Origin: a virus
Direction: 5' to 3' (one strand)
IMG/VR virus record: IMGVR_UViG_3300042691_053485
Location: 120,535-184,534 of that record
Length of the DNA stretch: 64,000 bases
Position numbers and translations under genes: made by a program. Numbering within the stretch: position 1 is the stretch's first letter; each line of letters opens with the position of its first letter. Below are positions 2,100 through 63,337 of this stretch, piece by piece. The notes under the pieces are model-generated. The model ran no database searches and had not been told where the DNA came from. It saw only the letters and a program-made list of their open reading frames with translations.

Positions 2100-2474
2100 A
2101 TGAAATTCAAGGGTATAAAATTTCCATACGAATCGGACTTATCAGGAAAGTTTTTAAAACTAAACTCAATTGACAAGGATGAAGTTAAAAGTAAAATTTC
2201 ATTTCTGATGACCACTGAAAGGGGAGAAAGATTGTATAAGCCGGATTTTGGGGTAAATATTCGGCAATTTTTGTTTGATGTGATTGACGATGAAACAATA
2301 AATGCAGTTAAAACAGAAATTACGAATGCAATTACCAAGTATATAAATGGAGTTAAGATTGAATCTGTTAAAGTTAATGTTGATGAACAATCCCACTTTT
2401 TAGGATTGTATGTTTCATATTCAATCAGCGATGGATTTTTTAAAGAAACCGATGAAATTTCACTTCTCTTTTGA
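2100..2474 (+). CDS. Baseplate wedge protein, gp25/GPW family
   Basis: The 124-aa product has the length and core pattern of T4 gp25 and the GPW/gp25 family: DKDEVKSKISFLMTTERGERLYKPDFGVNIRQFLFD, here residues about 25-60, where the conserved TxxGERxxxPxFG turn is clear. Gp25 forms part of the inner baseplate wedge with gp6 and gp53 and has a fold related to T6SS TssE. The gp6-like gene lies about 6.6 kb downstream on the same strand, separated by a block of minus-strand genes. The 3' end overlaps the converging phosphatase gene by 15 nt. A TATTTATA word sits 7 bp before the start. Confidence 0.88.
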   Translation: MKFKGIKFPYESDLSGKFLKLNSIDKDEVKSKISFLMTTERGERLYKPDFGVNIRQFLFDVIDDETINAVKTEITNAITKYINGVKIESVKVNVDEQSHFLGLYVSYSISDGFFKETDEISLLF

Positions 2475-3176
2475 GTAATAGAATTTTGCGGGGCGGCTTT
2501 GGATATATTCCTTTGATTTCACATCCATCAACGTTAATTTCCCATCGTTTTTAATCCCTGTATCTAAATTAATTAGATTTGCTCTAAAGACAGGTTTATG
2601 AGTATTTGTCGTTGAGTGCCCTATAAATATCTCCTTTATTTTATGGTCTTCATTTTTAAAGGTGACATTAACTTTACGCTTTTGCTCCTCTAGCGTTTTT
2701 GAGGTTTGAAACAGTTTTCGATTGCTTGCAAACCTCTTGTTATTTTGCATATCTATTGGGCGGTCAGGATTAAATCCGCCGTGCATAAAAATTTTATCCT
2801 CCTCAACATGGTAATATTTTGCCTTTGAAAAGTAGGATTCTAGTTTTGCTGCTAATTCTGAAGATTTTTTAATTTTTTCTATTGTACCCTTCCCCCCAAA
2901 CTTCTCCCAGTTTTTATTTATTTTATTTGTTTTTAGGTATTCGATGATAAAAAAGTCGTGGTTACCAATTATTGGTACAAAGTTTTGAATTGAAAGGAAG
3001 AAATCAACACATAAGTCAAAGTCATCCCATCCATCCGCCAAATCTCCAAGGAAGATTAATTTATCTTCAAATGGGTTGAAGTTAACTCTTGTGATTAATT
3101 CTGCTAGAGGCGTAAATGCTCCGTGTAAATCCCCTAATACAAATGTCCTTGGTCTTCTACAACTTTTCTTAGCCAC
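2460..3176 (-). CDS. PPP-family metallophosphatase (calcineurin-like), 238 aa
   Basis: The protein carries the dinuclear-metal motifs of the PPP branch in order: GDLHG at residues 15-19, GDLADG at 44-49, GNHD at 71-74, and later GHSTTNTHKPVF and NLINLDTG before a strand typical of the family. The usual Arg of GDxVDRG is absent. Lambda-phosphatase, bis(5'-nucleosyl)-tetraphosphatase ApaH and the phosphatase module of Pnkp all belong here, so the substrate may be phosphoprotein, a nucleotide or an RNA end. The in-frame start is GTG at 3176; an ATG two bases upstream is out of frame. TATTTATA lies 9 bp before the GTG. It converges on gp25 with a 15-nt overlap. Confidence 0.85.
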   Translation of the reverse strand: MAKKSCRRPRTFVLGDLHGAFTPLAELITRVNFNPFEDKLIFLGDLADGWDDFDLCVDFFLSIQNFVPIIGNHDFFIIEYLKTNKINKNWEKFGGKGTIEKIKKSSELAAKLESYFSKAKYYHVEEDKIFMHGGFNPDRPIDMQNNKRFASNRKLFQTSKTLEEQKRKVNVTFKNEDHKIKEIFIGHSTTNTHKPVFRANLINLDTGIKNDGKLTLMDVKSKEYIQSRPAKFYYSKEK

Positions 3177-30892: not shown

Positions 30893-31705
30893 ATGATTAA
30901 AAAAGTTATCCATACCGCAGATTGGCATCTTGAGCCCAAGAAAAATCATGAGAAGTTTAATGATGCAATCGACAGTTTTATTTCAACAGTACAATTACAT
31001 ACCAAGGATTGTACTCCGGAAGAAGTTCTTATTGTTATTGTTGGAGATTTGTTTGATAATACTTCCAAAGAACCATCAAACGAAGCCTTCATCATTATGT
31101 TTGATGCACTACATAAGATTTCCTCACATTGGAAAACTGTAATCTCTATTGGGAATCACGATTACGACATTAGGAACCCAGAAAAGATGGATTATATAAC
31201 GCCCTTATACAACGCATTTGTTAAATTAGGGTGGAGAAATATAAAATATATGAAGTCTACAGAAGATTACGAGATTGAAAATCTAATCTTTAGCAATTTC
31301 TCAAATCATGATAGGGGGATACCTAATCCTCCCAAGTCGAATAAAACAAAGATTGCCTTATTCCATGACCCAATTATGGGGGCAATTAATTTTGAAGGTT
31401 ATGATTTAACAGAGGGACATAATCGCTATGATGTTTCAATTTTTGAAGGATTTGATATTGTAATGATGGGTGACATCCATAGACATCAACAAATCCCTTA
31501 TGAAATCCCTGTAGTTTACTCAGGAAGTTTATTCCAAGTTAACTCCGGGGAGTCTGTAAACGGTCATGGGTTTGTAATGTGGGATTTAGATAATTACACT
31601 TATAAGTTCATTGAGGTGGAAATAAACCATGGAATATATAAGATAACGTCTGATACATTTCAAGATGTAATTTCAGGCAATTTCAAAATCAAAAATCTTA
31701 AATAA
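30893..31705 (+). CDS. Recombination nuclease subunit, gp47/SbcD/Mre11-like, 270 aa
   Basis: The calcineurin-type nuclease motifs are in order: TADWHLEPKKN near residues 7-17, IVGDLFDNTSKE near 50, IGNHDYD near 85, FHDPIMG near 155, and MMGDIHRHQQI near 190. This is the Mre11/SbcD/T4 gp47 pattern. With the next gene it forms the exonuclease that processes double-strand ends for recombination-dependent replication. The start lies 2 bp after the T-run of a hairpin. The stop abuts the gp46-like start. At 270 aa it lacks a long C-terminal capping domain. Confidence 0.93.
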   Translation: MIKKVIHTADWHLEPKKNHEKFNDAIDSFISTVQLHTKDCTPEEVLIVIVGDLFDNTSKEPSNEAFIIMFDALHKISSHWKTVISIGNHDYDIRNPEKMDYITPLYNAFVKLGWRNIKYMKSTEDYEIENLIFSNFSNHDRGIPNPPKSNKTKIALFHDPIMGAINFEGYDLTEGHNRYDVSIFEGFDIVMMGDIHRHQQIPYEIPVVYSGSLFQVNSGESVNGHGFVMWDLDNYTYKFIEVEINHGIYKITSDTFQDVISGNFKIKNLK

Positions 31706-34336
31706 ATGATGAAACTGAAACAAAACTCAAAGATTATTTTTGAGTGGAAGGATTACCCTCATGTGATGACTAAGGCTAAAGAAAATGAGATAAAAGCAAA
31801 AGTCGCTGAGAAATATGGGATAAGTAAATCACAAGTTGAAGTACAAAGAATCTATCTGAAAAGAAATGATACTGGGGAGCGAATTTCGACATCTATATTA
31901 GAATCTATCCTTGATGCTGATAAGCTCCGAAAAACTTACATCGATTATTTAAATACCCAAGGAATAAAAATTTCCCCGGAAGATTTTTTCAAAATTGATG
32001 AAGAGGTTATCAAAAATATCTCAACCACAAATGAAGCTTCAGTAAATCGAAGATATAGGATAACTAAAATCAAAGGAAAAAATATTTTTTCGTATGGAGA
32101 TTTTGAAAGGACTTATGACACTGATGGTATAACCCTTATTGAGTCTAATCCCCCAAATATGGGTGGTAAAACTTCTCTTGCGAGAATGGGTGCTTTTTTA
32201 CTGTATGGGAATAAAATAAAGTACGGTAGAAAAACTGCAATAACATTTGCAGATGTATTCAACCTATTCACTGAAGATAACCTCGCTTATATACAAGGAG
32301 AGGTAGAAATTGGAAATGATGTTTATTTCCTTAAAAGGGAATTAAAAAAAAGTAAAACTGGTACTATATCCCATAGTTTCAACCTTTACATTGCAGATGA
32401 ATCAGGGGAATTCAATCAGGATTTCGGTAGAAATGCAATTTCGTTGAATCATAAAGATGCCCAAGCAACACGAAAAAAGTTTGAATCTGTCATAGGAACT
32501 TTTGAAGATTATTTATTTTCTTCATATTACGAAAGTCAAAATATTGAGAAGTGGCTTGAAACTTCAGAAACAGAAAGATACCGCCTTTTTTGTGAATATC
32601 TTGGGCTTGGATTACTCGATGAAAAATATCAAATTTCAAGCAAGATGCTCAATAGCCATGTAAAAACAGGCTTGATGAGTAAATTCAGCATACAAGAATT
32701 GCAAACACAAATTGAACAATCGGCAACAAGGATTGTTGAAATTGAAGGGCAAAAGGCAGATTGTGAACTTGAAAAGCTTTCTATTTTGGCTATGATTGAT
32801 GCAAATAGGAAGATTATCAATGGGCTTCAAGCAGAAAAGCTCGGTATTGATAATCGAATCATAAATGTAAATGAGGAAGACATCAAAAAACGAATATCGG
32901 ATATACAGTTAAAAATCGGAGCAAAAAATACTGAAGTTGAAAGTATTTCAAAAGAAATTGAAAGACTTTCAAAGGAGTTTTCTGAATTTTTGACTAAAAT
33001 AGGAAATGAAACCTTAGATAACCTAGATGTTAAAATTACCGAAAGAATTAAATCGGCTAACGAAAGAATTGCTGAAATTTCTAAGGAGATGCACGAAAAG
33101 GAAGCGGCACTCCTGAACATTATTCCATCACCTAAGCTAAATGAGGCAAAGGTCGCGATTAAAATGCAAATTGATGAAAGAAGAGCTGAATATCAAGTTT
33201 ATTTGACAGAAAAAGTAAAACTTGAACAGGAGCTCAAGAAGCCTTTTCCAAAGGTTACTTGTAGTAAATGTGGGCATGAAGAAGATGGTAAGAGGGAAAA
33301 AATGTTGACTGAAAATAAAATTTCTGAATTAACAGGAAAGCTCTCCTTATTTGAGCAAGAAGCTGTGCGACTAAAGGAGCGTTCACTCCAAATTGATAGA
33401 GAAATCGAACTAGACATTCAGCAAACCCAAAAGAGGATTACCCATGAAATCGTAACGATTAAAGAAAGTTCAGAAGGAGAAAAGAGGAAACTCAATGAAT
33501 TGCAAGTCAAGCTCCAGACGTTGGCTCATTATAAGACGATTCCTGAAAAAATATCGGCTAATGAAAGTTCTAAAGAGTTAATTATGGAAACAATTGAACT
33601 TTTGAACAGTGAATTATCAGGTCAACAACATTTAGCGCAACTTTTGCAAAACTCTAAACTTCAATTGGAACATAATGCTTCGTTAGATAGTCAAATAAGC
33701 AGCGTGGAATTAGAAATAAAAGAATCTACTATTAAAATTTCTAATATTGATAAAAAAATATTTGATTTATCATCGGAGCTTAAAGTTGAAGAATATAAAA
33801 TTTCCGCTACACAAGACAACATAAAAACAATACAGGAAGAGATTGTAAAAGAAAGAAGTTTAAAGGCTTATGTACAAGTGCATAGTGATGAAGGATTAAG
33901 CAAATTCATTATCATGTCCATTTTACCTCAAATCAATTCTGATTTAGATGAGATTTTAGATGGCACAGATTTTAAACTTTCTGTTGATTATAATGAAAAG
34001 GGCATAAGATTTGTTATCGAAAGAGAAGGTCGGAAATATAACCTATATCAAGGGTCAGGATTTGAAAAAACTGTATCATGTTTAGCCTTACATTGCGTCA
34101 ATGTTCGGATGACCAATCTACCGATTTCAAACTCACTCATACTTGATGAAATATTTGGTGGTGTTTCCTATATAAACCTTGATAAAGTCGAAGGAATTTT
34201 GAGAAAATTATGCGAAGTTTTCGATAATGTCGACCTTATTACTCACACAATGCCCGAAGGATTCAGAAAAATTTCTGATACAATCTTGAGGGTGGAAAAG
34301 AAAAACAATAAATCCGCCTTATGCAAGGCTTTATAG
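31706..34336 (+). CDS. Recombination ATPase subunit, gp46/SbcC/Rad50-like, 876 aa
   Basis: N-terminal ATPase lobe: ESNPPNMGGKTSLARMG at about residues 146-162 is the Walker A, with NPPNMGGKT in place of the usual GxNGxGKS/T, so the first Gly is missing. A long coiled coil (about 300-740) is broken by a zinc hook CSKCGHEEDG near residue 518. The C-terminal lobe has GSGFEKTVSCLALH as signature and SNSLILDEIFG near 811 as Walker B. The first 110 residues, before RYRITKIKGKNIFSYGDFER, are an extra N-terminal segment not seen in SbcC. It partners the gp47-like protein. It overlaps the sigma factor gene by 16 nt. Confidence 0.92.
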   Translation: MMKLKQNSKIIFEWKDYPHVMTKAKENEIKAKVAEKYGISKSQVEVQRIYLKRNDTGERISTSILESILDADKLRKTYIDYLNTQGIKISPEDFFKIDEEVIKNISTTNEASVNRRYRITKIKGKNIFSYGDFERTYDTDGITLIESNPPNMGGKTSLARMGAFLLYGNKIKYGRKTAITFADVFNLFTEDNLAYIQGEVEIGNDVYFLKRELKKSKTGTISHSFNLYIADESGEFNQDFGRNAISLNHKDAQATRKKFESVIGTFEDYLFSSYYESQNIEKWLETSETERYRLFCEYLGLGLLDEKYQISSKMLNSHVKTGLMSKFSIQELQTQIEQSATRIVEIEGQKADCELEKLSILAMIDANRKIINGLQAEKLGIDNRIINVNEEDIKKRISDIQLKIGAKNTEVESISKEIERLSKEFSEFLTKIGNETLDNLDVKITERIKSANERIAEISKEMHEKEAALLNIIPSPKLNEAKVAIKMQIDERRAEYQVYLTEKVKLEQELKKPFPKVTCSKCGHEEDGKREKMLTENKISELTGKLSLFEQEAVRLKERSLQIDREIELDIQQTQKRITHEIVTIKESSEGEKRKLNELQVKLQTLAHYKTIPEKISANESSKELIMETIELLNSELSGQQHLAQLLQNSKLQLEHNASLDSQISSVELEIKESTIKISNIDKKIFDLSSELKVEEYKISATQDNIKTIQEEIVKERSLKAYVQVHSDEGLSKFIIMSILPQINSDLDEILDGTDFKLSVDYNEKGIRFVIEREGRKYNLYQGSGFEKTVSCLALHCVNVRMTNLPISNSLILDEIFGGVSYINLDKVEGILRKLCEVFDNVDLITHTMPEGFRKISDTILRVEKKNNKSALCKAL

Positions 34337-35649
34337 AACTTGAAAAAAAATACCTTCCAACGATTGATTTGAAATTACGGAGGGAGTTTCCTGAAATTTT
34401 CAAAAGAAAAGAAACAGGGAAAAGAAGAAAAGTGCAAAACCTCACGGAAACAGAAACCGTGAGGCTTTTTGCCTTGTACAAATCAGGAAACGAACAGGCG
34501 AGTAATAAGCTGATACTTTCACAACTAAAACTTGTGTACTTATACGCTAAAAAGTTCCATTTATCGTTAAACGGAACTGCACTTCCGGAAGATGACATTG
34601 TTGGGTTTGCTAACCTAATTTTGCTTGAAATTTTACCGGAATACGAGCCATACATGAACGGTAAATTTTGCTCGCTCGCATCATATATAAGGACATGGCT
34701 TGAATACAACCTGTTAGCAAAAATTAAGGAATATGGTCTTGTGGTTAGACTGCCAACAAATAAAATATCTGAGCTTACACTTAGAAAACGTTATTTGGGA
34801 CATTACGTTCAGAAGCATAATGAGCAACCTGGGCATGGAGACTCAATAGAAATCTTTGAGAAGGGAGAACACCGAAAAATTGTGTTCAATCTATTAGACC
34901 AAACGATTGACATTTTCGTCAAACAAAATAACACCTTTGAATTTAAAAAGAGTGTTAATTACGACCTTAATGAATGCTTTGAAATCATCTCAGGGAATAA
35001 TACAATTCTTGACAATGAAGATGAAACATTAGAATATTTTGATTGCTTTGCAAGCGATAACACTCACGTTTTCGAGGATGAGTTTAAGGTTGTTTCTAAA
35101 GAAATTAATAAGGTTCTTGATAGCTTGCCGCTTAGAGAGCAAGAGTCTGTTAAACTTTTTTATATCGACAATGAGCAGCTAAAAAGCATCCCTTGTAAAT
35201 TAACTCCTAATTTTGAAAGCAGCAGTGAAACAAGAACATTACAAAAAAGCTCTTTGAACAGGATTGAGATATTTATAGAGGGCGAAGAATCCATTTCATA
35301 CGAATTCACATCGAACTATCATGTTAAATCTGAAGAAGCAACAGGTGAGATTAAAAGTAAATGTTTAACACCATTATTTGGACGAGAAACAGTGTATAAA
35401 ACTTCAGCAGAAGACTTTGAGTTTTCATTTGAAATGATGAAGCCTCTAAAGAAAATTAAAATTGTTCATCAGACAGTGAAAGATTCTAAAGAAGTTCAAT
35501 ATAGTATCACAGGAAATATATTGCAATTCAGTGTTGATTTTCAAATGGGATATATATTCACCCCACAAACATTCCTCAATAACATTGAGGCAATTTTATC
35601 AAAACTAAGAAGAAAACTTATTCACCTTCAAGACATCATAAAAGAATGA
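34321..35649 (+). CDS. Phage sigma factor (sigma-70 family, gp55-like) with insertion in region 4, 442 aa
   Basis: Regions 1.2-2 are clear at residues about 38-150: LTETETVRLFALYKSGNEQA, ILSQLKLVYLYAKKFHLSL, LPEDDIVGFANLILLEILPE, SYIRTWLEYNLLAKI and VVRLPTNKISEL. Region 4.1 appears as VLDSLPLREQESVKLFYID near 263-281. About 130 beta-rich residues then intervene before TPQTFLNNIEAILSKLRRKL, which looks like the end of region 4.2. Its place beside gp46/47 mirrors T4, where gene 55 lies near 47 and 46, so it is the best candidate for the late sigma factor. A terminator-like hairpin sits inside the coding sequence at 34440-34470. Confidence 0.82.
   Translation: MQGFIELEKKYLPTIDLKLRREFPEIFKRKETGKRRKVQNLTETETVRLFALYKSGNEQASNKLILSQLKLVYLYAKKFHLSLNGTALPEDDIVGFANLILLEILPEYEPYMNGKFCSLASYIRTWLEYNLLAKIKEYGLVVRLPTNKISELTLRKRYLGHYVQKHNEQPGHGDSIEIFEKGEHRKIVFNLLDQTIDIFVKQNNTFEFKKSVNYDLNECFEIISGNNTILDNEDETLEYFDCFASDNTHVFEDEFKVVSKEINKVLDSLPLREQESVKLFYIDNEQLKSIPCKLTPNFESSSETRTLQKSSLNRIEIFIEGEESISYEFTSNYHVKSEEATGEIKSKCLTPLFGRETVYKTSAEDFEFSFEMMKPLKKIKIVHQTVKDSKEVQYSITGNILQFSVDFQMGYIFTPQTFLNNIEAILSKLRRKLIHLQDIIKE
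34440..34470 (+). promoter_or_regulatory. Terminator-like hairpin inside the sigma factor gene
   Basis: CCTCACGG at 34440-34447 pairs perfectly with CCGTGAGG at 34457-34464 over AAACAGAAA, followed by CTTTTTG. It encodes NLTETETVRLF, so it is both coding and a possible attenuator for read-through from gp46. Confidence 0.5.
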
Positions 35650-45114: not shown

Positions 45115-45595
45115 TGCAATCTGAAAAATCATTCAAGGACTAGGGCGACAACTTCCAAACCCCGCCCCATATTTGCCAATTTATGGCATCTTTCTTACCT
45201 GAAAATGCAGGAACTATTTTAGAACCTACACCAGGGAGGGGTAATCTAGTGAAAGCCTTAGAATCCAAAGGAGTTGTAAATTCACCTGAAGATTTCTCTC
45301 AAATGAAAATTCAAAGCTTTGATTGGATTGTCATGAATCCTCCATTCACTCCAATAAGCAAGGATATGAAATCCTCTACAAGTGTATGGAGATGAGTAAT
45401 AATATTATTGCATTGATGCCATATTCAACAATTATCAATGGTGAGAAAAGAACTTCTGATATTATGAAATGGGGGCTGAAATCAATCACTCATTTGCCAA
45501 GAAGCACATCCAAAGGAAGTCGAGTTCAAACTTGCATTTTGGAGATGCAAAGAGGATTCGTTGGAGACACTAAATTTCAATTGTTGCCTAAATAA
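45114..45595 (+). pseudogene. N6-adenine DNA methyltransferase, disrupted twice
   Basis: ATG 45114 opens MQSEKSFKD followed by an amber TAG at 45141, then in the same frame GDNFQTPPHICQFMASF and TILEPTPGRGNLVKAL, the N-terminal motif (DxFqTP) and motif I of phage adenine methylases. Trp is usual at the amber position (TGG to TAG). The catalytic motif MNPPFTPIS near 45350 is followed by a frameshift at about 45355-45365, after which GYEILYKCMEMSNNIIALMP continues to 45595. Two independent lesions make it a pseudogene. An in-frame ATG at 45183 could yield only a short fragment. Confidence 0.8.
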
Positions 45596-45599
45596 TTCT

Positions 45600-45854
45600 A
45601 TGGAAAAAATGGAACTAACGTTTTTATGTAACTGGGATGTAATCGATTTATTAGATTTAGTGAATAGGATAAGTGGAGGGGATAGGACTCACTCTGCAAA
45701 AGCCGAATTCAAGTTATTTTGTGAGGAAAAATGTAACAACACAGGTTATCTCTATTTTTTAGACGATGACCGCCTGCCAATTATAAATAACTATTTAATG
45801 TCTAACTTTGCGTACCAAAGAGGTGAAAAAATTATGTTTTGGCTATCTTGGTGA
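45600..45854 (+). CDS. Hypothetical protein, 84 aa
   Basis: ATG 45600 (MEKMELTFLCNWDVIDLLDL) lies 4 bp after the dead methylase. The product has an acidic N-terminus, two Cys (FCEEKC) and an aromatic C-terminus (KIMFWLSW). Not recognised. It is the last gene before a 123-bp gap that contains a TATTTATG word, after which the RNA-repair cassette begins. Confidence 0.5.
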   Translation: MEKMELTFLCNWDVIDLLDLVNRISGGDRTHSAKAEFKLFCEEKCNNTGYLYFLDDDRLPIINNYLMSNFAYQRGEKIMFWLSW

Positions 45855-45977: not shown

Positions 45978-47258
45978 ATGAAAATTAACATCAAATCTAA
46001 AAATCCGGAACTTCTCTCTATTCTACTCAAGAATAAAGATACATTCCAAGGATTAGACCTCAAGCCTCTCAGGAATGGGGTTATAATTGGCAACTGTGCT
46101 TCAGATAATGAGTATGAAGTCATCTTCCAAGACTCAAAATATTCGTTCTGTGACGAAAATCATGCGTTGGATTACCAATCTTATTGTAATCCGCAAATTA
46201 TACTGAGCATTGCATCCGAGCTCTTCCGCCATATCCTTGACAAGGAAAAATTTGAAGCAAAGGATTTACCTTGGCTAGGTAAAACTATTGGTGAGGTTGA
46301 CAAGCCTCATGAAATAGAAATAAATGTTCCAACGATATATATCGACTCAAACTGGGTTCGAAATGGAAAATTTATTTTATCCAAATACTATGACTGCATT
46401 TCAGTCGAGAAAGTTTCTTTCAATCTCTACTCGCTGACCATTAAAGGGGAGTTGACAGTCTTTTACGCCTTTAACTTGCTTTTATTGTCTGCATTATTCA
46501 TTGCAGTAACAAACGAACAGTTTTTCCGCTTTGATGAACAGTTGGCAGAAAAATACATAAAAGTTTTGGAGAACACCAAACCTTGCTACTTTGTGGTTTA
46601 TTTATTTAAAAACCGACTTCTACCCTATGAAGAACGATTCAAAAAAATGAAGCATAAACTTGATAAGGTAATACCAAACCTGCAACTCGCATTTGGAGAT
46701 ACCCATACACAACGAATGCAAGCAATCCGGGATATTTTGCTACCAAACCTCAAATCCATCTTGGACATTGGATGTGGTGAAATGCGATATGGTAAACTAC
46801 TTTTGAAACACATGAGTGAGAATCATTCTTATTTTGCTGTTGACATTGATAGAGGAAATGTTAAGTTTGTCGAAAAATTAAAAGAAAATTACAAGCATGA
46901 TATAACGTTTCTCGATTCTATTGAAGATTACCGTTCAAAGGAATTGGTTGATGTTATACTGACAGAAGTCATTGAACACATGGAAGTTGAGGAGGCAATC
47001 TCACTTGTGAAAACTGTAATCGAAAGGGTTAGCTTTGATAACTTTATTCTCACAACTCCAAATAGGGATTTTAACAAGTTCTATGAACTCGACCATGAAT
47101 TCCGACATCATGACCACAAGTTTGAATTCAACAGGTCAGAATTTGAAGCCTTCAAAATTCAAATTGAGAAAATGGGTGTTAAAACTCATGAGATTCAAAT
47201 TGGAGATTCTTATGAGGGTATCAGCCCATCATTTGCAATAGTAATAAAAAAAGCATAA
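45978..47258 (+). CDS. hen1: Hen1-type RNA 3'-terminal 2'-O-methyltransferase, 426 aa
   Basis: Full two-domain bacterial Hen1 layout. The N-terminal half (1-240) corresponds in length and in the strand-helix run FNLYSLTIKGELTVFYAFNL to the Hen1 domain that activates Pnkp ligase. The C-terminal half is the methyltransferase: motif I ILDIGCGEMRYGKLL at 261-275, the metal-binding E330-V-I-E333-H334, TTPNRDFNKF at 359-368, and RHHDHKFEFNRSEF at 376-389 with the remaining ligand His. Hen1 methylates the 2'-OH of the 3' end of a broken RNA before sealing, so the repaired site resists recleavage. ATG 45978 is preferred over the upstream TTG. The next two genes follow after 5 and 1 bp. Confidence 0.92.
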   Translation: MKINIKSKNPELLSILLKNKDTFQGLDLKPLRNGVIIGNCASDNEYEVIFQDSKYSFCDENHALDYQSYCNPQIILSIASELFRHILDKEKFEAKDLPWLGKTIGEVDKPHEIEINVPTIYIDSNWVRNGKFILSKYYDCISVEKVSFNLYSLTIKGELTVFYAFNLLLLSALFIAVTNEQFFRFDEQLAEKYIKVLENTKPCYFVVYLFKNRLLPYEERFKKMKHKLDKVIPNLQLAFGDTHTQRMQAIRDILLPNLKSILDIGCGEMRYGKLLLKHMSENHSYFAVDIDRGNVKFVEKLKENYKHDITFLDSIEDYRSKELVDVILTEVIEHMEVEEAISLVKTVIERVSFDNFILTTPNRDFNKFYELDHEFRHHDHKFEFNRSEFEAFKIQIEKMGVKTHEIQIGDSYEGISPSFAIVIKKA

Positions 47259-47263
47259 AAAGC

Positions 47264-47827
47264 ATGGATATAAAAAAAATGACCTTGCAGGAGCTTGAGG
47301 CTCTCCAAGCACAGATTAGTTCAGCTTTAGAACTATTAAAGCGAAAAGAGTCTGAACAACTAGAGAAAAAAGGAATAGGCTCATTAAAAAAAGGTGATAA
47401 AATCTTAGGGATAAGATTATCTTTTGGAGGACATAGCATTAGTGAACCTGAAAAATTAACAGGAGAAGTTGATTTCATCGACTTTTGCGATATAAGTTCG
47501 ATAGAATTGAAAGAAGATAGTGACTATTTTAGGCTAACTATATCTCATCCAACCGAACCTATTGGTTTCAGCACATTACCGCTCAAAAATGAGTACTATG
47601 ACAAGCATTTCTGCTTGAACATTGATAGGATGAAAACTGGCTATGATGCTTTTTTTACATTAAAACCTGAAACATGGAAGCAGGATTTATTTTCTGCAAT
47701 TACACAGACAAAAAAGAATTTTGTACAGGAGGCTGTAAAGGAGAGTGAAATTTACACAGAAAAATTAACACTCTTCTTGAGCTACCAAGAAAGAATTCAA
47801 TCATTCACTGATAATAACACAAATTAA
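47264..47827 (+). CDS. Unknown protein between Hen1 and ligase, 187 aa
   Basis: Not recognised. Residues 5-36 are a heptad-like helix (MTLQELEALQAQISSALELL) that could mediate dimer or complex formation. The rest is a beta-rich domain of about 100 aa (GDKILGIRLSFGGHSISEPE; VDFIDFCDISSIELKEDSDY) and a C-terminal helix. It is packed between Hen1 (5 bp) and the ligase (1 bp), so it is almost certainly co-expressed with them. It may stand in for the parts of Pnkp missing here, as a scaffold or RNA-binding subunit. It has no P-loop and no phosphatase motifs. Confidence 0.75.
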   Translation: MDIKKMTLQELEALQAQISSALELLKRKESEQLEKKGIGSLKKGDKILGIRLSFGGHSISEPEKLTGEVDFIDFCDISSIELKEDSDYFRLTISHPTEPIGFSTLPLKNEYYDKHFCLNIDRMKTGYDAFFTLKPETWKQDLFSAITQTKKNFVQEAVKESEIYTEKLTLFLSYQERIQSFTDNNTN

Positions 47828-47828
47828 A

Positions 47829-49019
47829 ATGCGACGAAATCAAAAAAACGACAAAGAACAAGCTCGTATATTCTGGGCAATAAAAGAGAAGATTATGCAC
47901 TTCTCCCCAACAATTTCTCCTGCACCGAAAAACATTGAGCGAGCGGAAATTGAATCTATATATGAGGCATTGCTCCACTTTAAGAACGAAGGCGTTCAAG
48001 AAGTTGTTGTACAACCTAAGTATATGGGGTCTTATTGTGACATTTATTTATCAAAGGATATAAATGATACGAAATTCACCTCAAGGGAGGGGCATTTAAT
48101 AGACTATTTAGATAGGAATGCTTTATTAGAGGCGGTTAAGCCAATCCATACAAGGTTCGATTTTACCGACTTGGAATTAGTAATCGTTCAAGCTGAGTTG
48201 ATGCCTTGGGCTGCAATGGGCAAAAAGTTGATTGAACGGGATTTTCTATCTTACTATAATGCCTGCTTGTCACATGCACAGGAGCTTAAAAAGTCTTCAA
48301 TAACCCATAAATTGGAAACACTTTCAAAATCAAAAGAATTTTCAGAATTTCTTTTGAAGTCTGCTGAAGGTGATATTTCCGAGTTCAAGCCGCATGAAAT
48401 ATCTGCTTATAAGGCATTGGATAAGATTGTAACAGAAAGCCTTGTTCCAAACCCAAGTTTTATGCTTGGTCAATTAGAAAAATATAAAGAGCAGCTCGAT
48501 ATTTATGGTAAGGAGGCAACAATTCACTTCAAACCGTTCAACGTATTGAAAAAAGTCTATTTGAACGGAACACAGCACCTCCAAACTTCCAATGCTTTTG
48601 GATTTTACGAAGTTTCGGATGACGCATTTTTAGTTGTTTCATTGGCAGATAAAAATTTTGAAGACAGTGTTGAATACACCAAGCAATTCTTTGATGGGCT
48701 TGTAGCAAAAAATATGGAGGGTATCATGATTAAACCTGAACAAATCGATGTCGAAAAAACCCCATGCTTGAAAGTTCGAAATACCAACTACCTCAGAATG
48801 ATTTATGGTTGGGATTTTGCATATAAATATCTATACCATCTTGACCGTCGAAATATTGGTAAGAAACTGAAAATCTCAAAAAATGAAGTAAAAATTTCAA
48901 ATGAAATTTTGAAAATTCATCCGAAGGATATAACAGAATCCAACGAAAGGTATGTAAGCCTTGTCACAAGCCGAATCAAGGAAGAAGAATTTGAGGAAGA
49001 ACTTGATACAAGACTTTGA
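47829..49019 (+). CDS. Stand-alone Pnkp-type RNA ligase domain, 396 aa
   Basis: Matches the C-terminal ligase module of bacterial Pnkp in length and motifs. Nucleotidyl-transfer lysine K64 in VQPKYMGSYCD (motif I KxxGS), the unusual Pnkp motif ELMPWAAMG at 123-131, EGIMIKP at 297-303 (motif IV) and CLKVRNTNYLRMIYGWDF at 313-330 (motif V plus the Pnkp-specific YLRxIYG). Pnkp ligase joins RNA ends after kinase and phosphatase healing and is activated by Hen1. No kinase or phosphatase domain is attached, and none is adjacent. It lies 1 bp after the 187-aa gene and completes the cassette. Confidence 0.9.
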   Translation: MRRNQKNDKEQARIFWAIKEKIMHFSPTISPAPKNIERAEIESIYEALLHFKNEGVQEVVVQPKYMGSYCDIYLSKDINDTKFTSREGHLIDYLDRNALLEAVKPIHTRFDFTDLELVIVQAELMPWAAMGKKLIERDFLSYYNACLSHAQELKKSSITHKLETLSKSKEFSEFLLKSAEGDISEFKPHEISAYKALDKIVTESLVPNPSFMLGQLEKYKEQLDIYGKEATIHFKPFNVLKKVYLNGTQHLQTSNAFGFYEVSDDAFLVVSLADKNFEDSVEYTKQFFDGLVAKNMEGIMIKPEQIDVEKTPCLKVRNTNYLRMIYGWDFAYKYLYHLDRRNIGKKLKISKNEVKISNEILKIHPKDITESNERYVSLVTSRIKEEEFEEELDTRL

Positions 49020-49025
49020 TATGCT

Positions 49026-49271
49026 ATGAAAAGGAAAACGGAAATTGTAAATAAAAAAGAGATTCAGCACTACTTTGGTGTAAATCCGGGTGGTGCTGTT
49101 TATCAAACAGATTTTAAAATTTCTACAGAAAGTGGAACTTATATATTTATAGGTGGGTTATTCAGGTATCCTTCAGAAACATTTCACAACATAAAAGAAG
49201 GCGAGCGATACGAAATAACATATTATACACTTCTTTTCAGAAAATTTATAGTACAAATGAAAAAAGTGTAA
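49026..49271 (+). CDS. Hypothetical protein, 81 aa
   Basis: Starts 6 bp after the ligase stop. A small beta-rich protein (VYQTDFKISTESGTYIFIGG) with a basic start and end. No motif is recognised. As the fourth gene of the cassette it could be part of it or simply a passenger. Confidence 0.5.
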   Translation: MKRKTEIVNKKEIQHYFGVNPGGAVYQTDFKISTESGTYIFIGGLFRYPSETFHNIKEGERYEITYYTLLFRKFIVQMKKV

Positions 49272-49304: not shown

Positions 49305-49481
49305 ATGAATTACGAAGCAAAAACAAATAGAGGTCGGCAAGGATTTTCTTCAACTAATGCTAGACGTTATGCGAAGAAGTCGAAATCAAAAGCGGAGCGA
49401 ATAACTATAAAATCAGAGCTTAAAACATTCCTGAAAACAGGAATTGAGCCTTTAAGCTTTAAATCGCCTAAAAAAGGCTAG
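49305..49481 (+). CDS. Small basic protein, 58 aa
   Basis: An open frame from ATG 49305 to TAG 49481 encodes MNYEAKTNRGRQGFSSTNAR, a lysine/arginine-rich middle (KKSKSKAERITIKSELKTFL) and KSPKKG at the end. The charge suggests nucleic-acid binding. It ends about 20 bp before the presumed left end of the TnpB element. Confidence 0.5.
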   Translation: MNYEAKTNRGRQGFSSTNARRYAKKSKSKAERITIKSELKTFLKTGIEPLSFKSPKKG

Positions 49482-49499: not shown

Positions 49500-50872
49500 T
49501 GAACAAAGTGTAACATTTCTAACCATTGGCATATTAATTGCCATACAAGGTATAAGTTTTTTTTAGTATTGCTGCATAGCTGATAGATAAGTAGAAAATG
49601 CAATATAAGTCATTAAAAATAAGATTAGAGCCGACAAAGGTGCAGCGGGAGATGTTTGCAAAACATGCAGGCACAGCTCGCCATGCCTACAATCAGGCTT
49701 TGAACTATTGCAATGACTTATTTAAAGACGGGAAATCAATCCCTTCCGCCATCACCCTTCACAAGTGGCTTGTAGCAACAGTAAAAAAGAAACACTCTTG
49801 GTATTATGAGGTGTCAAAGTGTGCCCCACAACAAGCACTGAGGAATCTTGAAACAGCCTACAAGAACTTTCACCGCCTGCAAAAGCAATCCGGATACAAG
49901 CTTCTTCACTACAAACATGTGAACGGAGTTAAAGTATCAATAGGTTTGCAAGGACTACCGAGGTATAAAAAGAAAGGAAGAGGCGATTCATTCTACTTGG
50001 AAGATAATGGTAAGTATGGAATAAGGATAGAAGATAACAAAGTCAAACTTCCGAGAATCGGGTGGGTAAAATTATCCGAAACCCTAGAGGTTAAGTCGAT
50101 AAAAAACTGCACCATCAGCAGGACAGCAGACCATTGGTTCATCACATTCAGAGTCGAACACATTCTAGCTATCACAAAAAAGAAAGAACTTGTCGTTGGT
50201 GTTGACTTAGGTATAAAAGCCTTGGCAACACTCAGCAACGGAGAAATATTCAAAAATAAAAAGCCTTATCGAAAGGCAAAAGAAAAGCTCAGAAGGCAAC
50301 AAAAGGAAGTGAGCAGAAGATTTGTTAGAGGTGCTGAAAACCAAAGCAACAACTACAAAAAATCTGTTCAAAAGCTTGCAAAAATACATGCAAGGGTTGC
50401 GAATGTGAGAAAGGACTGTCTTCACAACCTGACAACCTATCTCGCCAAGAACTTTGAAGTGGTGGTGATAGAGGATTTGAAGGTGAAGAACATGGTGAAA
50501 AACAAAAAGCTTGCATCAGCAATCCTTGACGGTGGATTTTTCGAGTTCAAAAGGCAACTGTTGTACAAAAAAGTATGGTATGGAGGAGAAGTCATTTTGG
50601 CGGACACCTTCTTTGCCAGCAGCAAGTTGTGTTCGAACTGCGGCAACAAGAAGCAAAGTTTGAAACTTTCTGAGAGAAAATATGTTTGCAATTCTTGTCA
50701 CCTCGAAATTGACAGGGATTTGAATGCAAGCATCAACCTGAAAAAATTGGCGGTGAGTTCCACCGTGTCAGCCCTTGGAGATGGGAGTTCGGTGCTTTTC
50801 AGCACCTAGCCTGTCGATGAATTGGGAACAAAAACTGCACATGTTTGATTTTGTGCAAGTTTTTGAGAACGG
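49500..50872 (+). mobile_element. IS200/IS605-like element with tnpB only
   Basis: The right end is set at 50872 because the remnant at 8120-8248 shares sequence exactly to that base. The left end is near 49500: a perfect 5-bp hairpin TGGCA-TATTAAT-TGCCA at 49527-49543 lies between it and tnpB, as in IS605-type elements that have subterminal hairpins and no inverted repeats. There is no tnpA, so mobility would need a transposase in trans. The insertion lies between the small basic gene and a lipoprotein gene whose leader begins right after the right end. Confidence 0.75.
49598..50809 (+). CDS. tnpB: TnpB RNA-guided nuclease, 403 aa
   Basis: Standard TnpB architecture. An N-terminal OrfB helix-turn-helix region (KIRLEPTKVQREMFAKHAGT) precedes the RuvC-like core: Asp in VVGVDLGIKALATL (about 205), Glu in VVIEDLKVKNM (about 293) and Asp in LEIDRDLNASINL (about 372). 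A four-Cys zinc finger (CSNCGNKKQSLKL, CNSCHLEI) lies between the last two. All three catalytic acids are present, so the nuclease should be active. TnpB cleaves DNA guided by an RNA made from the element's right end, and helps the element to persist. Confidence 0.95.
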   Translation: MQYKSLKIRLEPTKVQREMFAKHAGTARHAYNQALNYCNDLFKDGKSIPSAITLHKWLVATVKKKHSWYYEVSKCAPQQALRNLETAYKNFHRLQKQSGYKLLHYKHVNGVKVSIGLQGLPRYKKKGRGDSFYLEDNGKYGIRIEDNKVKLPRIGWVKLSETLEVKSIKNCTISRTADHWFITFRVEHILAITKKKELVVGVDLGIKALATLSNGEIFKNKKPYRKAKEKLRRQQKEVSRRFVRGAENQSNNYKKSVQKLAKIHARVANVRKDCLHNLTTYLAKNFEVVVIEDLKVKNMVKNKKLASAILDGGFFEFKRQLLYKKVWYGGEVILADTFFASSKLCSNCGNKKQSLKLSERKYVCNSCHLEIDRDLNASINLKKLAVSSTVSALGDGSSVLFST

Positions 50873-54680: not shown

Positions 54681-55002
54681 CCTCAAACTAACACTCAATA
54701 GGCTACCATTTCAAGTAATGCTTAGTGGGGAGAAAAAGGCTGAATATCGGAAGCCAACAGATTGGATTAAAAGCCGCCTCTTTAATAAAGACGGTTCACT
54801 TAAATCCATCAATACAGTTGAATTCACCAATGGATATGGAAATCATCTTCCGAAATTTGAAGTTTCTTTTGAAGGTATTTTAATTGCCGATAAACATGAA
54901 ACCATTACCTTCAGTAATGGTCTTAAAGTTGAAATTGAACCAGGTGACCTAATCCTAAGATTAGGAGAAATCTTGAGAATTGAAAATATTTTTGAACAAT
55001 AA
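54661..55002 (+). CDS. ASCH-domain-like protein, 113 aa
   Basis: LTLNRLPFQVMLSGEKKAEY and RKPTDWIKSRLF at residues about 9-42, then VEFTNGYGNHLPKFEVSFEG, match the ASCH pattern (I....f...I..G.K..E.R) of the PUA-like fold, which binds RNA or hydrolyses modified nucleosides. Phage ASCH proteins of this size are common. The substrate is not known. It lies directly before the Ro-like gene, 13 bp from its ATG, which suggests a shared RNA-related function. Confidence 0.7.
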   Translation: MKNSKNSLKLTLNRLPFQVMLSGEKKAEYRKPTDWIKSRLFNKDGSLKSINTVEFTNGYGNHLPKFEVSFEGILIADKHETITFSNGLKVEIEPGDLILRLGEILRIENIFEQ

Positions 55003-55015
55003 AAAAAAACAAACA

Positions 55016-56590
55016 ATGAACCAATTTTTAAACGCCACTACAACTAAAAACACTCGCACAGAAAACGGTGCATTGTCTAATTCTTCAACAGGTAGTATTG
55101 CTGTTGACCAATTCGCTAAAGTCGCTACATATATTACTCCTAGAGATAAACAACAAATCTATGGAGATATGGCACTACTTTGGGGTGAAAACCCTGAAGT
55201 GACAATGAAGTTGCTGTTCTATTGGAGAATGGTAACAAGACAATTAAAAGGAAAAATCAGAACTGAAAAAGTTCAAAAGGGGATGGGTGTACGCTACGAG
55301 ATTTTTCAAAGATTGATTTGGGTTGCAAAAAATCATCCTAACATTTTCTATGCCAACATGCACCTGCTCCCTGAAGTCGGTTCATGGAAAGACCTATTAA
55401 CAATCTACGAGTTGGACACTGAGGGCATCATCAGCTTGGATGCAATAGTATTCCTATTTGCGGAAACTATCCGTGCTTCAGAAAATGAAGCATCGGCAGC
55501 ATACCATACTGAAAATATCAAAAAGTATCTTCCGACAATTAGAAAGGAGAGAAATACAGTTCATAAACAGCAAATGTTTAAGTTTGCGTCTGAACTCATG
55601 GCTGAAATGGGTTGGTCTGAACGAGATTACCGAAAATTTAAAGCTTCAGGAATTTCTCACAAATTCCAAAGGGATATCTGTGCAAAAAACTTCGATGAGC
55701 TAAATTTCTCTACAATCGGTGGCAAATTCTTAAACCGTTTAACCTCAACCAATAAGAAGGGTCAGAACTTTCTTAAAAAATGGGGCTTGGAGAATAAATA
55801 TATAGACTGGATTAAAAGCCGTGATGTTGTTGCATTCACAGGTTACCCATTTGAATTGGTGAAAAGATTGCAAAATGCCAAACTTAGTTTGGCAGAGGAA
55901 TTCACTGTAAATAAACAGTTTGAAAAACTTTTGCGAGTCGGTCGAAAGGACGGGGCAATCAAAGGGAATGTTTGGTGTGCCTTAGATACTTCTATGTCTA
56001 TGGGGTGCTCTGTAGCGAATGGTGTTACAGCCTACGATATTTGCATTGGACTTGGCATATATTTCTCCTCGCTAAATGAAGGCGCTTTCAAAGATAATGT
56101 TATTATGTTTGATACTGAAAGCACCGTGAAAAAACTGTCGGGAACGTTCACTGATAAGTTTAGACAGATTACAGGTGACAACTGTGCGTGGGGTACAACT
56201 AACTTCCAATCAGTGATTGATGAAATAGTCAGAATTCGCAAAGCCAATCCTGAAATTCCGGTCTCTGACTATCCAGAGACATTGCTTGTTGTTTCAGACA
56301 TGCAGTTCAATCCTAGTTCATCTCATGAGACAAACTATGAAACTGCAATGCGTAAGCTACGAGAAGTTGGTCTTCCAAAAATGCAAATTATTTGGTGGAA
56401 TGTAGCTTCTCGAACAAAGGATTTTCCATCGACCATAAATGATAAGGGGACTATTATCATAGGTGGATATGATGGCTCAATTGTATCACTGCTTTTAAGT
56501 GGAGAATCAAAGGAGAAATCCTCTATGACCCCTTATGATGCGATGATGCTTGCAATTTCTCAAGAAATTTTTAATTTCGTAGAAATTTAA
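55016..56590 (+). CDS. Ro60-like/DUF2828 protein with vWA domain, 524 aa
   Basis: The N-terminal two thirds are helical repeats in the style of TROVE/DUF2828: LLFYWRMVTRQLKGK near 60, HLLPEVGSWKDLLTIYEL near 115, and SGISHKFQRDICAKNFDELN near 210. The C-terminal third is a vWA domain with an intact MIDAS: DTSMSMG near 323-329, TTNFQSV near 395, and VVSDMQF near 428. Ro60 proteins form a ring that holds misfolded RNA and Y RNA; bacterial Rsr is often next to RNA-repair genes. ATG 55016 is used; the longer in-frame start lies in the preceding gene. Three repeated hairpins and a tRNA follow directly. Confidence 0.75.
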   Translation: MNQFLNATTTKNTRTENGALSNSSTGSIAVDQFAKVATYITPRDKQQIYGDMALLWGENPEVTMKLLFYWRMVTRQLKGKIRTEKVQKGMGVRYEIFQRLIWVAKNHPNIFYANMHLLPEVGSWKDLLTIYELDTEGIISLDAIVFLFAETIRASENEASAAYHTENIKKYLPTIRKERNTVHKQQMFKFASELMAEMGWSERDYRKFKASGISHKFQRDICAKNFDELNFSTIGGKFLNRLTSTNKKGQNFLKKWGLENKYIDWIKSRDVVAFTGYPFELVKRLQNAKLSLAEEFTVNKQFEKLLRVGRKDGAIKGNVWCALDTSMSMGCSVANGVTAYDICIGLGIYFSSLNEGAFKDNVIMFDTESTVKKLSGTFTDKFRQITGDNCAWGTTNFQSVIDEIVRIRKANPEIPVSDYPETLLVVSDMQFNPSSSHETNYETAMRKLREVGLPKMQIIWWNVASRTKDFPSTINDKGTIIIGGYDGSIVSLLLSGESKEKSSMTPYDAMMLAISQEIFNFVEI

Positions 56591-56766: not shown

Positions 56767-56847
56767 GGAAGGTATCCGGCTGGATGAGGAGACTGTCTTG
56801 AAAACAGTTGGTCGATAGACTTGCAGGTTCGAGTCCTGCATCTTCCG
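56767..56847 (+). tRNA. tRNA-Ser (anticodon UGA)
   Basis: Class II tRNA: acceptor GGAAGGT/ATCTTCC, D stem TCC/GGA, anticodon stem ACTGT/ACAGT with loop CTTGAAA (anticodon TGA), variable arm GTC-GATA-GAC and T arm GCAGG-TTCGAGT-CCTGC. Length is 81 nt with discriminator G; CCA is not encoded. It is embedded in the array of repeated hairpins between units 2 and 3. Confidence 0.92.
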
Positions 56848-56861
56848 CAAATTAAGAAAGA

Positions 56862-62461: not shown

Positions 62462-63337
62462 ATGAAATCTCAGATATTAAAAGTGATTATGACTGAATCA
62501 CAATTTAAAAAAACTGTAAACACAATTTCAGAAAACGATGAAGAGGAGTTTGATGCTGAAGAAAAAATAATAATGCTTATTCGTTCAGGTGATATTAGTA
62601 ATATCAAATTAGCTCAAAATTTTTGTGAGATGTACAATTTAGATTTTGACGATTTACTTGCTCACGAATTTCAATTGTCATATTGGAGAGATTATGTAAA
62701 TTTCGGAAAAGATTTAAGTAATTTAGAAGTAGTGGAAGAACTTTTAAAAAGAAAACATATTACAGTCAATTGGCCAAATTATGATTCAATTCCATCAAGT
62801 ATTGGATATTTTAAAAACTTAACCTATGCTGTTTTCAATACAAAATATATGGAGGATTCAGACATACCGATTGAATTTGAAAATTTACGCAAATTAGAAC
62901 ACCTAGACATAAGCAAAAATAACTTTCTAACAATCGCAACACCAATAACAAAGTTATATACTCTTGAAAAATTGATTGCGATTGACAGTCAAATAGAATT
63001 TATTCCGGAAAGCATAGCAAATCTTCACCCATTAGTAGAATTGAATCTATCAAGAAATAAAATCTCATCACTGCCAAGAGGAATTGGGAGTCTGCAAAAT
63101 TTAAATGAACTTTCACTTGGTCGAAATCAGATAAGTGAACTTCCTGAAACCTTATCAAATTTAAAAAACCTAAGAGTTTTAATGCTTCATGAAAATGCTA
63201 TAAAAGAGTGTTCACATATAATTGAGAGTCTAACTTCTCTCAAAGTGCTCAGTGTCAAGAATAATCCATTGAGACCATCTGAAGTAAAACGGCTAAAAGA
63301 ATTATCCGAATCACTAGGATTTGCATTAGATATTTAA
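62462..63337 (+). CDS. Leucine-rich-repeat protein with leader, 291 aa
   Basis: Leader MKSQILKVIMTESQFKKTVN, then an acidic helical domain (about 25-95: EEEFDAEEKIIMLIRSGDIS, LAHEFQLSYWRDYVNFGKDL), then six to seven leucine-rich repeats of 23 aa (LVELNLSRNKISSLPRGIGS, LNELSLGRNQISELPETLSN, LRVLMLHENAIKECSHIIES). These match the bacterial LRR class in which L..L.L..N.I..LP repeats form a solenoid for protein binding. LRR proteins are rare in phages. The next gene is a paralog with the same N-terminal domain. Confidence 0.8.
   Translation: MKSQILKVIMTESQFKKTVNTISENDEEEFDAEEKIIMLIRSGDISNIKLAQNFCEMYNLDFDDLLAHEFQLSYWRDYVNFGKDLSNLEVVEELLKRKHITVNWPNYDSIPSSIGYFKNLTYAVFNTKYMEDSDIPIEFENLRKLEHLDISKNNFLTIATPITKLYTLEKLIAIDSQIEFIPESIANLHPLVELNLSRNKISSLPRGIGSLQNLNELSLGRNQISELPETLSNLKNLRVLMLHENAIKECSHIIESLTSLKVLSVKNNPLRPSEVKRLKELSESLGFALDI

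What the first reader, a model, noticed from the sequence alone, without database searches (positions are those of the whole stretch)
45978..49019. A phage-borne Hen1 / 187-aa protein / Pnkp-ligase RNA-repair cassette
Seen: three genes with gaps of 5 and 1 bp. The first has the Hen1 metal-site motifs (EVIEH, RHHDHKFE) and a Hen1-type N-terminal half; the third has all ligase motifs specific to bacterial Pnkp (KYMGS, ELMPW, EGIMIKP, YLRMIYG) but no kinase or phosphatase domain. Known: in bacteria Pnkp and Hen1 (or Pnkp1-Rnl-Hen1) repair ribotoxin-cleaved tRNA and add a 2'-O-methyl that blocks recleavage. Inference: the phage carries a reduced version, perhaps to counter tRNA-cleaving anticodon nucleases used in anti-phage defence. 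A split-up architecture with a new middle protein has, to my knowledge, not been described.
Basis: partly seen in the sequence, partly recalled or inferred. Interest (0 to 1): 0.9.

Follow-up and report, generated by a model that had tools for sequence, protein, structure and literature searches.

The report
Phage RNA-sealing pair lacking end-healing enzyme
A large tailed phage carries the methylating and sealing halves (Hen1 and Rnl) of a known bacterial system that repairs cut RNA, probably to undo host attacks on tRNA, but the enzyme that normally cleans the broken ends was not found in its sequence and an unknown small protein sits between the two genes.

Summary
Three intact, co-directional genes lie at 45978-47258, 47264-47827 and 47829-49019, with gaps of 5 and 1 bp. 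Gene 1 is a full-length Hen1. Gene 3 is not a stripped Pnkp: it is Rnl, the stand-alone ligase of the bacterial Pnkp1-Rnl-Hen1 complex (PDB 4xrp_B, E 6.9e-82; Hen1 to 4xrp_C, E 3.4e-75). That three-protein architecture has been known since 2015, and a phage Hen1/PNKP pair was reported for XacN1 in 2018, so neither the split nor the phage location is new.

New here is the absence of Pnkp1, the 5'-kinase/3'-phosphatase. It is missing beside the genes and was not found in the 184.5 kb record. Five sampled Bacteroidota genomes have contiguous Hen1-Rnl-Pnkp1. One other virus record (335 kb), whose Rnl is sister to this one, also has Hen1 and Rnl without Pnkp1. The 187-aa middle protein has no detectable relative.

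Most likely this is a methylate-and-seal Rnl-Hen1 heterodimer. Its ends would be healed by another enzyme, or already be 5'-P/3'-OH, as the PARIS nuclease AriB leaves them. The record ends mid-gene, so a Pnkp1 in missing sequence cannot be excluded. New variant of a known kind.

The parts
45978..47258 (+). [quoted passage not shown]
   Evidence: PF22032 E 2.2e-45; 4xrp_C E 3.4e-75 over 3-424; AF2 pLDDT 88.8, Foldseek TM 0.88 to 4xrp Hen1; E330, E333, H334, H377, H380 invariant in 16 sequences
47264..47827 (+). 187-aa protein of unknown function; helical ends predicted at low confidence; possible accessory subunit
   Evidence: No match in Pfam above cut-off, NCBIfam, PDB, phage genomes, 395 Bacteroidota genomes or any fetched locus; AF2 pLDDT 38.9, uninformative; coding by codon usage
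47829..49019 (+). Rnl, ATP-dependent RNA ligase of the Pnkp1-Rnl-Hen1 type (presumed adenylated Lys64)
   Evidence: 4xrp_B E 6.9e-82 over 11-396; groups with bacterial Rnl at 100/100, sister to viral L095 at 98/89; core ligase motif residues invariant across phage relatives
49020..49597 (+). Place where bacterial operons carry pnkp1; here two small ORFs (49026-49271, 49305-49481), then a TnpB gene
   Evidence: bacterial order Hen1-Rnl-Pnkp1; no kinase/phosphatase found in the 184.5 kb record

Best explanation
The phage encodes a two-enzyme methylate-and-seal module of the Pnkp1-Rnl-Hen1 family. By analogy with the solved complex, the N-terminal domain of Hen1 grips Rnl and opens its active site; Hen1 methylates the 2'-OH of the broken RNA's 3' terminal ribose; Rnl adenylates itself (Lys64), activates the 5'-phosphate and joins it to that 3'-OH, giving a repaired tRNA that resists a second transesterifying cut. 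The phage has dropped Pnkp1. Ends left as 5'-OH/2',3'-cyclic phosphate would have to be healed by an enzyme supplied elsewhere (host, or an undetected phage enzyme), while ends left as 5'-P/3'-OH could be sealed directly. The 187-aa protein is probably a co-expressed accessory. Purpose: keeping translation alive when the infected cell cuts its tRNAs. Shown: gene identities, catalytic residues, family placement, no detectable Pnkp1 in the record. Inferred: complex formation, activity, substrate, purpose, role of the middle gene.
For: Full-length matches to solved Hen1 and Rnl of one complex and a Hen1 model at TM 0.88 to 4xrp Hen1. Catalytic residues invariant. Tree placement with bacterial Hen1-Rnl-Pnkp1 operons (operons). 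In C. gingivalis the Rnl-Hen1 pair forms a heterodimer, ligates 5'-P/3'-OH tRNA halves without Pnkp1, SAM speeds this at least tenfold, and the repaired RNA resists colicin D (PMC4411300). AriB of PARIS leaves 5'-P/3'-OH tRNA ends (PMC12409363). A second viral record with a sister Rnl also lacks Pnkp1.
Against: No experiment on these proteins. The record is open at its 3' end, with an ORF running off, and has no end repeats, so Pnkp1 may be in missing sequence. Most viral Hen1 genes do sit with a kinase/phosphatase, so doing without one is unusual. The 2'-O-methyl gives no obvious chemical protection against a two-metal-ion nuclease such as AriB.
Confidence: 0.72

Rival explanations
1. Ordinary complete system: a Pnkp1-type kinase/phosphatase lies in the unassembled part of this genome, and the three proteins work as the known heterohexamer.
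For: The contig's last ORF is cut and the ends carry a repeated gene family. In C. gingivalis hen1 lies far from the rnl-pnkp1 operon (PMC4411300), so the parts may be dispersed.
Against: 184.5 kb searched without a hit, comparable to distantly related phages of 160 and 190 kb. Terminase, portal, sheath, helicase, RNR and baseplate genes are present. In bacteria with this order Pnkp1 directly follows Rnl. The L095 record (335 kb) lacks it too.
Confidence: 0.2
2. Specialised sealing of breaks that need no healing: the module acts only on RNA cut by metal-dependent nucleases (5'-P/3'-OH ends), which makes Pnkp1 dispensable.
For: The Rnl-Hen1 heterodimer ligates such ends, faster than the hexamer (PMC4411300). 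AriB of PARIS makes such ends in tRNA (PMC12409363). Pnkp1 is missing in two related viral records. RtcB was also not found.
Against: The protective value of Hen1 methylation is against transesterifying nucleases, which leave 5'-OH and cyclic phosphate. The Pnkp1-contacting residues of Rnl vary even in bacteria that have Pnkp1, so their change here is uninformative.
Confidence: 0.25
3. The 187-aa protein replaces Pnkp1, as a new end-healing enzyme or as a scaffold bridging to another kinase.
For: It sits between the two genes with gaps of 5 and 1 bp and is coding.
Against: No P-loop, HAD or metallophosphoesterase motif seen; no family hit. The other Pnkp1-less record, L095, has three unrelated small genes in that place, so the position tolerates passengers.
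Confidence: 0.1
4. A decaying remnant of a once complete cassette: Pnkp1 lost by mobile-element activity and the rest on the way out.
For: A methyltransferase gene just upstream (45183-45854) is broken in frame, and a TnpB gene stands just past where Pnkp1 would be.
Against: Both enzymes are full length with intact catalytic residues and normal codon usage. The Rnl sister L095 shows the same state at only about 42% identity, too diverged for recent decay.
Confidence: 0.08

Closest known systems
[quoted passage not shown] PMC4411300)
   Same: Hen1 and Rnl are full-length homologues with the same domains and motifs; the gene order matches Bacteroidota operons (Hen1 before Rnl)
   Different: No Pnkp1 found in the record; a 187-aa gene lies between hen1 and rnl; phage-borne
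Bacterial Pnkp-Hen1 repair system (e.g. Clostridium thermocellum; NCBIfam TIGR04075/TIGR04074)
   Same: Ligase domain and Hen1 are related
   Different: There the ligase is fused to kinase and phosphatase in one protein; both genes here are far below the family cut-offs
Hen1-Rnl pair of jumbo phage XacN1 (ORF198/ORF197) and RAS14
   Same: Adjacent hen1 and ligase genes in a phage
   Different: A small P-loop kinase gene precedes hen1 there; the ligases fall outside the Pnkp1-Rnl-Hen1 clade
Viral record IMGVR_UViG_3300025121_000011 (L095, 335 kb)
   Same: Rnl is sister to this one (98/89), Hen1 in the same clade, no Pnkp1 found in the record
   Different: Three unrelated small genes (one GNAT-like) lie between hen1 and rnl
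T4 Pnkp + Rnl1 tRNA repair
   Same: Phage repair of cleaved tRNA by an ATP-dependent ligase
   Different: Different ligase family, no methyltransferase, and T4 has its own kinase/phosphatase

Membership tests
Pnkp1-Rnl-Hen1 repair system | Rnl homologous over its full length to the solved Rnl, with ligase motifs | tested here: met
   4xrp_B E 6.9e-82, residues 11-396; motifs; tree
Pnkp1-Rnl-Hen1 repair system | Hen1 with N-terminal ligase-activating domain and metal-dependent methyltransferase domain | tested here: met
   metal-site motifs invariant in 16 sequences
Pnkp1-Rnl-Hen1 repair system | Pnkp1 (T4-type kinase plus HAD phosphatase) encoded by the same genome | tested here: not met
   No match in the 184.5 kb record with AAA_33, four T4-Pnk-like queries or a Pnkp1 profile; the same profile finds the gene or its kinase part in RYC, sm033, XacN1, RAS14 and L098. 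The record may be incomplete
Pnkp1-Rnl-Hen1 repair system | Heterohexamer; repair of ribotoxin-cut tRNA needs all three proteins | not testable with these tools
   Needs biochemistry. The Pnkp1-contact residues of Rnl proved uninformative
Pnkp-Hen1 system | Single protein with kinase, metallophosphoesterase and ligase domains | tested here: not met
   Gene 3 is ligase only; TIGR04075 73.9 bits against a cut-off of 750
Known anti-phage defence families (PADLOC) | Match to a defence-system model | tested here: not met
   No match for the three proteins

The most novel reading that the evidence does not exclude
A lineage of phages has turned the Pnkp1-Rnl-Hen1 machine into a kinase-free methylating RNA ligase, with the 187-aa protein as a new third subunit, specialised for tRNA cut by metal-dependent defence nucleases (5'-P/3'-OH ends) such as AriB of PARIS.
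Probability: 0.12. Interest if true: 0.8.

Novelty: new variant of a known kind. Interest (0 to 1): 0.5.

Why it matters
No in vivo substrate or role was known for Pnkp1-Rnl-Hen1 (PMC4411300). A phage-borne version points to host RNA cleavage during infection as the natural setting and makes it testable by deleting two phage genes and challenging with known tRNA-cutting defences. The Pnkp1-less form separates sealing from healing, and asks whether some phages only need to mend breaks left by metal-dependent nucleases. Viral records show several ways of packaging the same four activities: fused Hen1-Pnk, separate kinase, split Pnkp, or no healing enzyme found.

Tried and rejected
Gene 3 as a truncated Pnkp: rejected by best match and tree. 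Pnkp1-interface residues of Rnl (E369, N375, D379) as evidence of lost Pnkp1 binding: they looked lost at first, but bacteria with Pnkp1 also vary at N375 and D379, so dropped. Middle protein: the only viral hit (L108) is a 19-residue chance match to the start of a capsid-like protein; AF2 on the single sequence gave pLDDT 38.9, so no fold search was run on it. Metallophosphoesterases in the phage as the missing healing enzyme: 30893-31705 is SbcD-like next to SbcC; 2460-3176 is a lambda/ApaH-type phosphatase, not excluded but unlinked. A weak kinase-family hit in L095's record has the N-terminal sequence of a dephospho-CoA kinase by my reading, and the one in this record lies in the DnaB-helicase region. 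A literature search found no description of a Pnkp1-less Rnl-Hen1, but only open-licence papers were searched; one paper looked up by DOI was not held.

Full report
What is there. The three genes exist as described. Hen1 runs 45978-47258, the 187-aa protein 47264-47827 and the ligase 47829-49019, all on + and with gaps of 5 and 1 bp. Codon usage supports all three as coding in the annotated frame. The window is the right-hand part (120535-184534) of a 184,534-bp IMG/VR virus record. It carries terminase, portal, tail sheath, DnaB-like helicase, ribonucleotide reductase and baseplate genes, so it is a myovirus. Its baseplate protein is distantly related to those of Flavobacterium phages of 160 kb and a Microcystis phage of 190 kb. 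The last ORF runs off the end, so the record may be incomplete.

Identity of Hen1. Pfam Hen1_N matches at 2.2e-45. The solved C. gingivalis Hen1 (4xrp_C) matches over 3-424 at 3.4e-75, against 9.6e-17 for the best isolated Hen1 methyltransferase domain. A model from 16 aligned sequences (pLDDT 88.8) superposes on 4xrp Hen1 at TM 0.88 over the whole chain. E330, E333, H334, H377 and H380 are invariant. From my knowledge of the family, the metal ligands are the two Glu and the His of EVIEH plus the last His of RHxDH. The first-stage refutation criterion for Hen1 is not met, with the limit that geometry was judged by overall superposition and sequence, not by measuring the site.

Identity of the ligase. 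The best match is Rnl (4xrp_B, 11-396, 6.9e-82). Three-domain Pnkp ligase structures follow at about 1e-15. In the tree it sits with bacterial Rnl at 100/100 and is sister to viral L095 at 98/89. The protein is therefore Rnl, a ligase that is naturally a separate gene, not a Pnkp that lost domains.

What is missing. In five Bacteroidota genomes (5 of 395 sampled) the order is Hen1-Rnl-Pnkp1, contiguous. Pnkp1 there is a T4-Pnk-like kinase with HAD phosphatase. In the phage, Rnl is followed by two small ORFs and a TnpB gene. No T4-Pnk-like kinase or phosphatase was found in the 184.5 kb: AAA_33, four phage Pnk/kinase queries, bacterial Pnkp1 and a Pnkp1 profile. The same profile finds the Pnk part of the fusions in RYC, sm033 and L098, and the small kinases of XacN1 and RAS14, so the search has power. 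RtcB was not found either. The 335-kb record of L095 also has no Pnkp1.

Viral survey. The two scans gave 29 distinct IMG/VR records, to which four named phages were added. Architectures: Hen1 plus three-domain Pnkp in most; Pnkp split in two ORFs (L097, L123); kinase-phosphatase, ligase and Hen1 as three genes (L133); ligase plus Hen1 fused to a T4-type kinase-HAD phosphatase (RYC, sm033, L098); small kinase-Hen1-ligase (XacN1, RAS14). Apart from records cut at a contig end, the window's record and L095 are the ones with both Hen1 and Rnl and no healing enzyme found.

Middle gene. No family, structure, phage or sampled bacterial relative was found. L095 has three other small genes between Hen1 and Rnl, unrelated by sequence. 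The spacer position therefore looks permissive, and the middle gene may be a passenger. Its role is unknown; I give it about 10% to be the functional replacement of Pnkp1.

How it most likely works. In C. [quoted passage not shown] That pair ligates 5'-P/3'-OH tRNA halves, with at least tenfold stimulation by SAM, faster than the hexamer, and the product resists colicin D (PMC4411300). The phage pair keeps every element for this. What it cannot do, as far as seen, is turn 5'-OH/2',3'-cyclic-P ends into ligatable ones. Either another enzyme heals them, or the target breaks are already 5'-P/3'-OH, as AriB of PARIS leaves them (PMC12409363). T4-Pnk-like genes occur in only 11 of 296 sampled Bacteroidota genomes, so a host supply by this family would not be general; the true host is unknown. 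A test through the Pnkp1-contact residues of Rnl was inconclusive, because bacteria with Pnkp1 vary there too.

Novelty. XacN1's authors already reported PNKP plus Hen1 in a phage (PMC5852040). A 2021 jumbo-phage survey lists RtcB, Rnl1, Rnl2, kinases and phosphatases and has no mention of Hen1 (PMC7824862). Borg elements carry a putative Pnkp1-Rnl-Hen1 (PMC11208441). I found no description of a Pnkp1-less Rnl-Hen1 pair, within an open-licence library only. Verdict: new variant of a known kind, interest 0.5.

Noticed in passing
L002:9140-11293, L004:9203-11383, L098:11339-13468: In Vibrio phages RYC and sm033 and one IMG/VR record, Hen1 is fused to a T4-type polynucleotide kinase-HAD phosphatase, with Rnl just upstream; annotated in RYC and sm033 only as 'polynucleotide kinase'. 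A methyltransferase-kinase-phosphatase fusion in phages.
   Followed up: partly
45183-45854: Broken gene between the cytosine methyltransferase and Hen1: fragments in two frames, with an NPPF motif, look like one adenine methyltransferase interrupted by frame changes; real decay or assembly error cannot be told apart.
   Followed up: no
49598-50809; also G000:41936-43186 and 70310-71560: TnpB (IS605 OrfB) right after the cassette; two further copies elsewhere in the same phage share its N-terminal sequence.
   Followed up: no
54980-56590 and 56767-56848: DUF2828 + DUF7788 protein that by my reading resembles a Ro60/TROVE-vWA protein, 176 bp before a gene ARAGORN calls tRNA-Ser but which stays below Rfam's gathering score (best: tRNA-Sec, 35.8 bits); possibly a Ro-like protein with a tRNA-like partner.
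   Followed up: partly
2460-3176 (-): Lambda/ApaH-type metallophosphatase, weakly similar to the Pnkp phosphatase region (1.8e-5); a candidate, not linked, for 3'-end healing.
   Followed up: partly
L145, L146, L147, L148: Bacterial Hen1-Rnl-Pnkp1 operons in probable RNA-repair islands; neighbours look like a T4 Rnl1-type ligase, nucleotidyltransferases and TatD (families not tested).
   Followed up: no
62462-63337 and both ends of the 184.5 kb record: Leucine-rich repeat protein; the first bases of the record recur at 3681, and a stretch near 3541 recurs near the right end; repeats may have broken the assembly there.
   Followed up: no
30893-31705 and 31706-34336; 34321-35649: SbcD-like and SbcC-like pair followed by a sigma-factor-like protein.
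   Followed up: no
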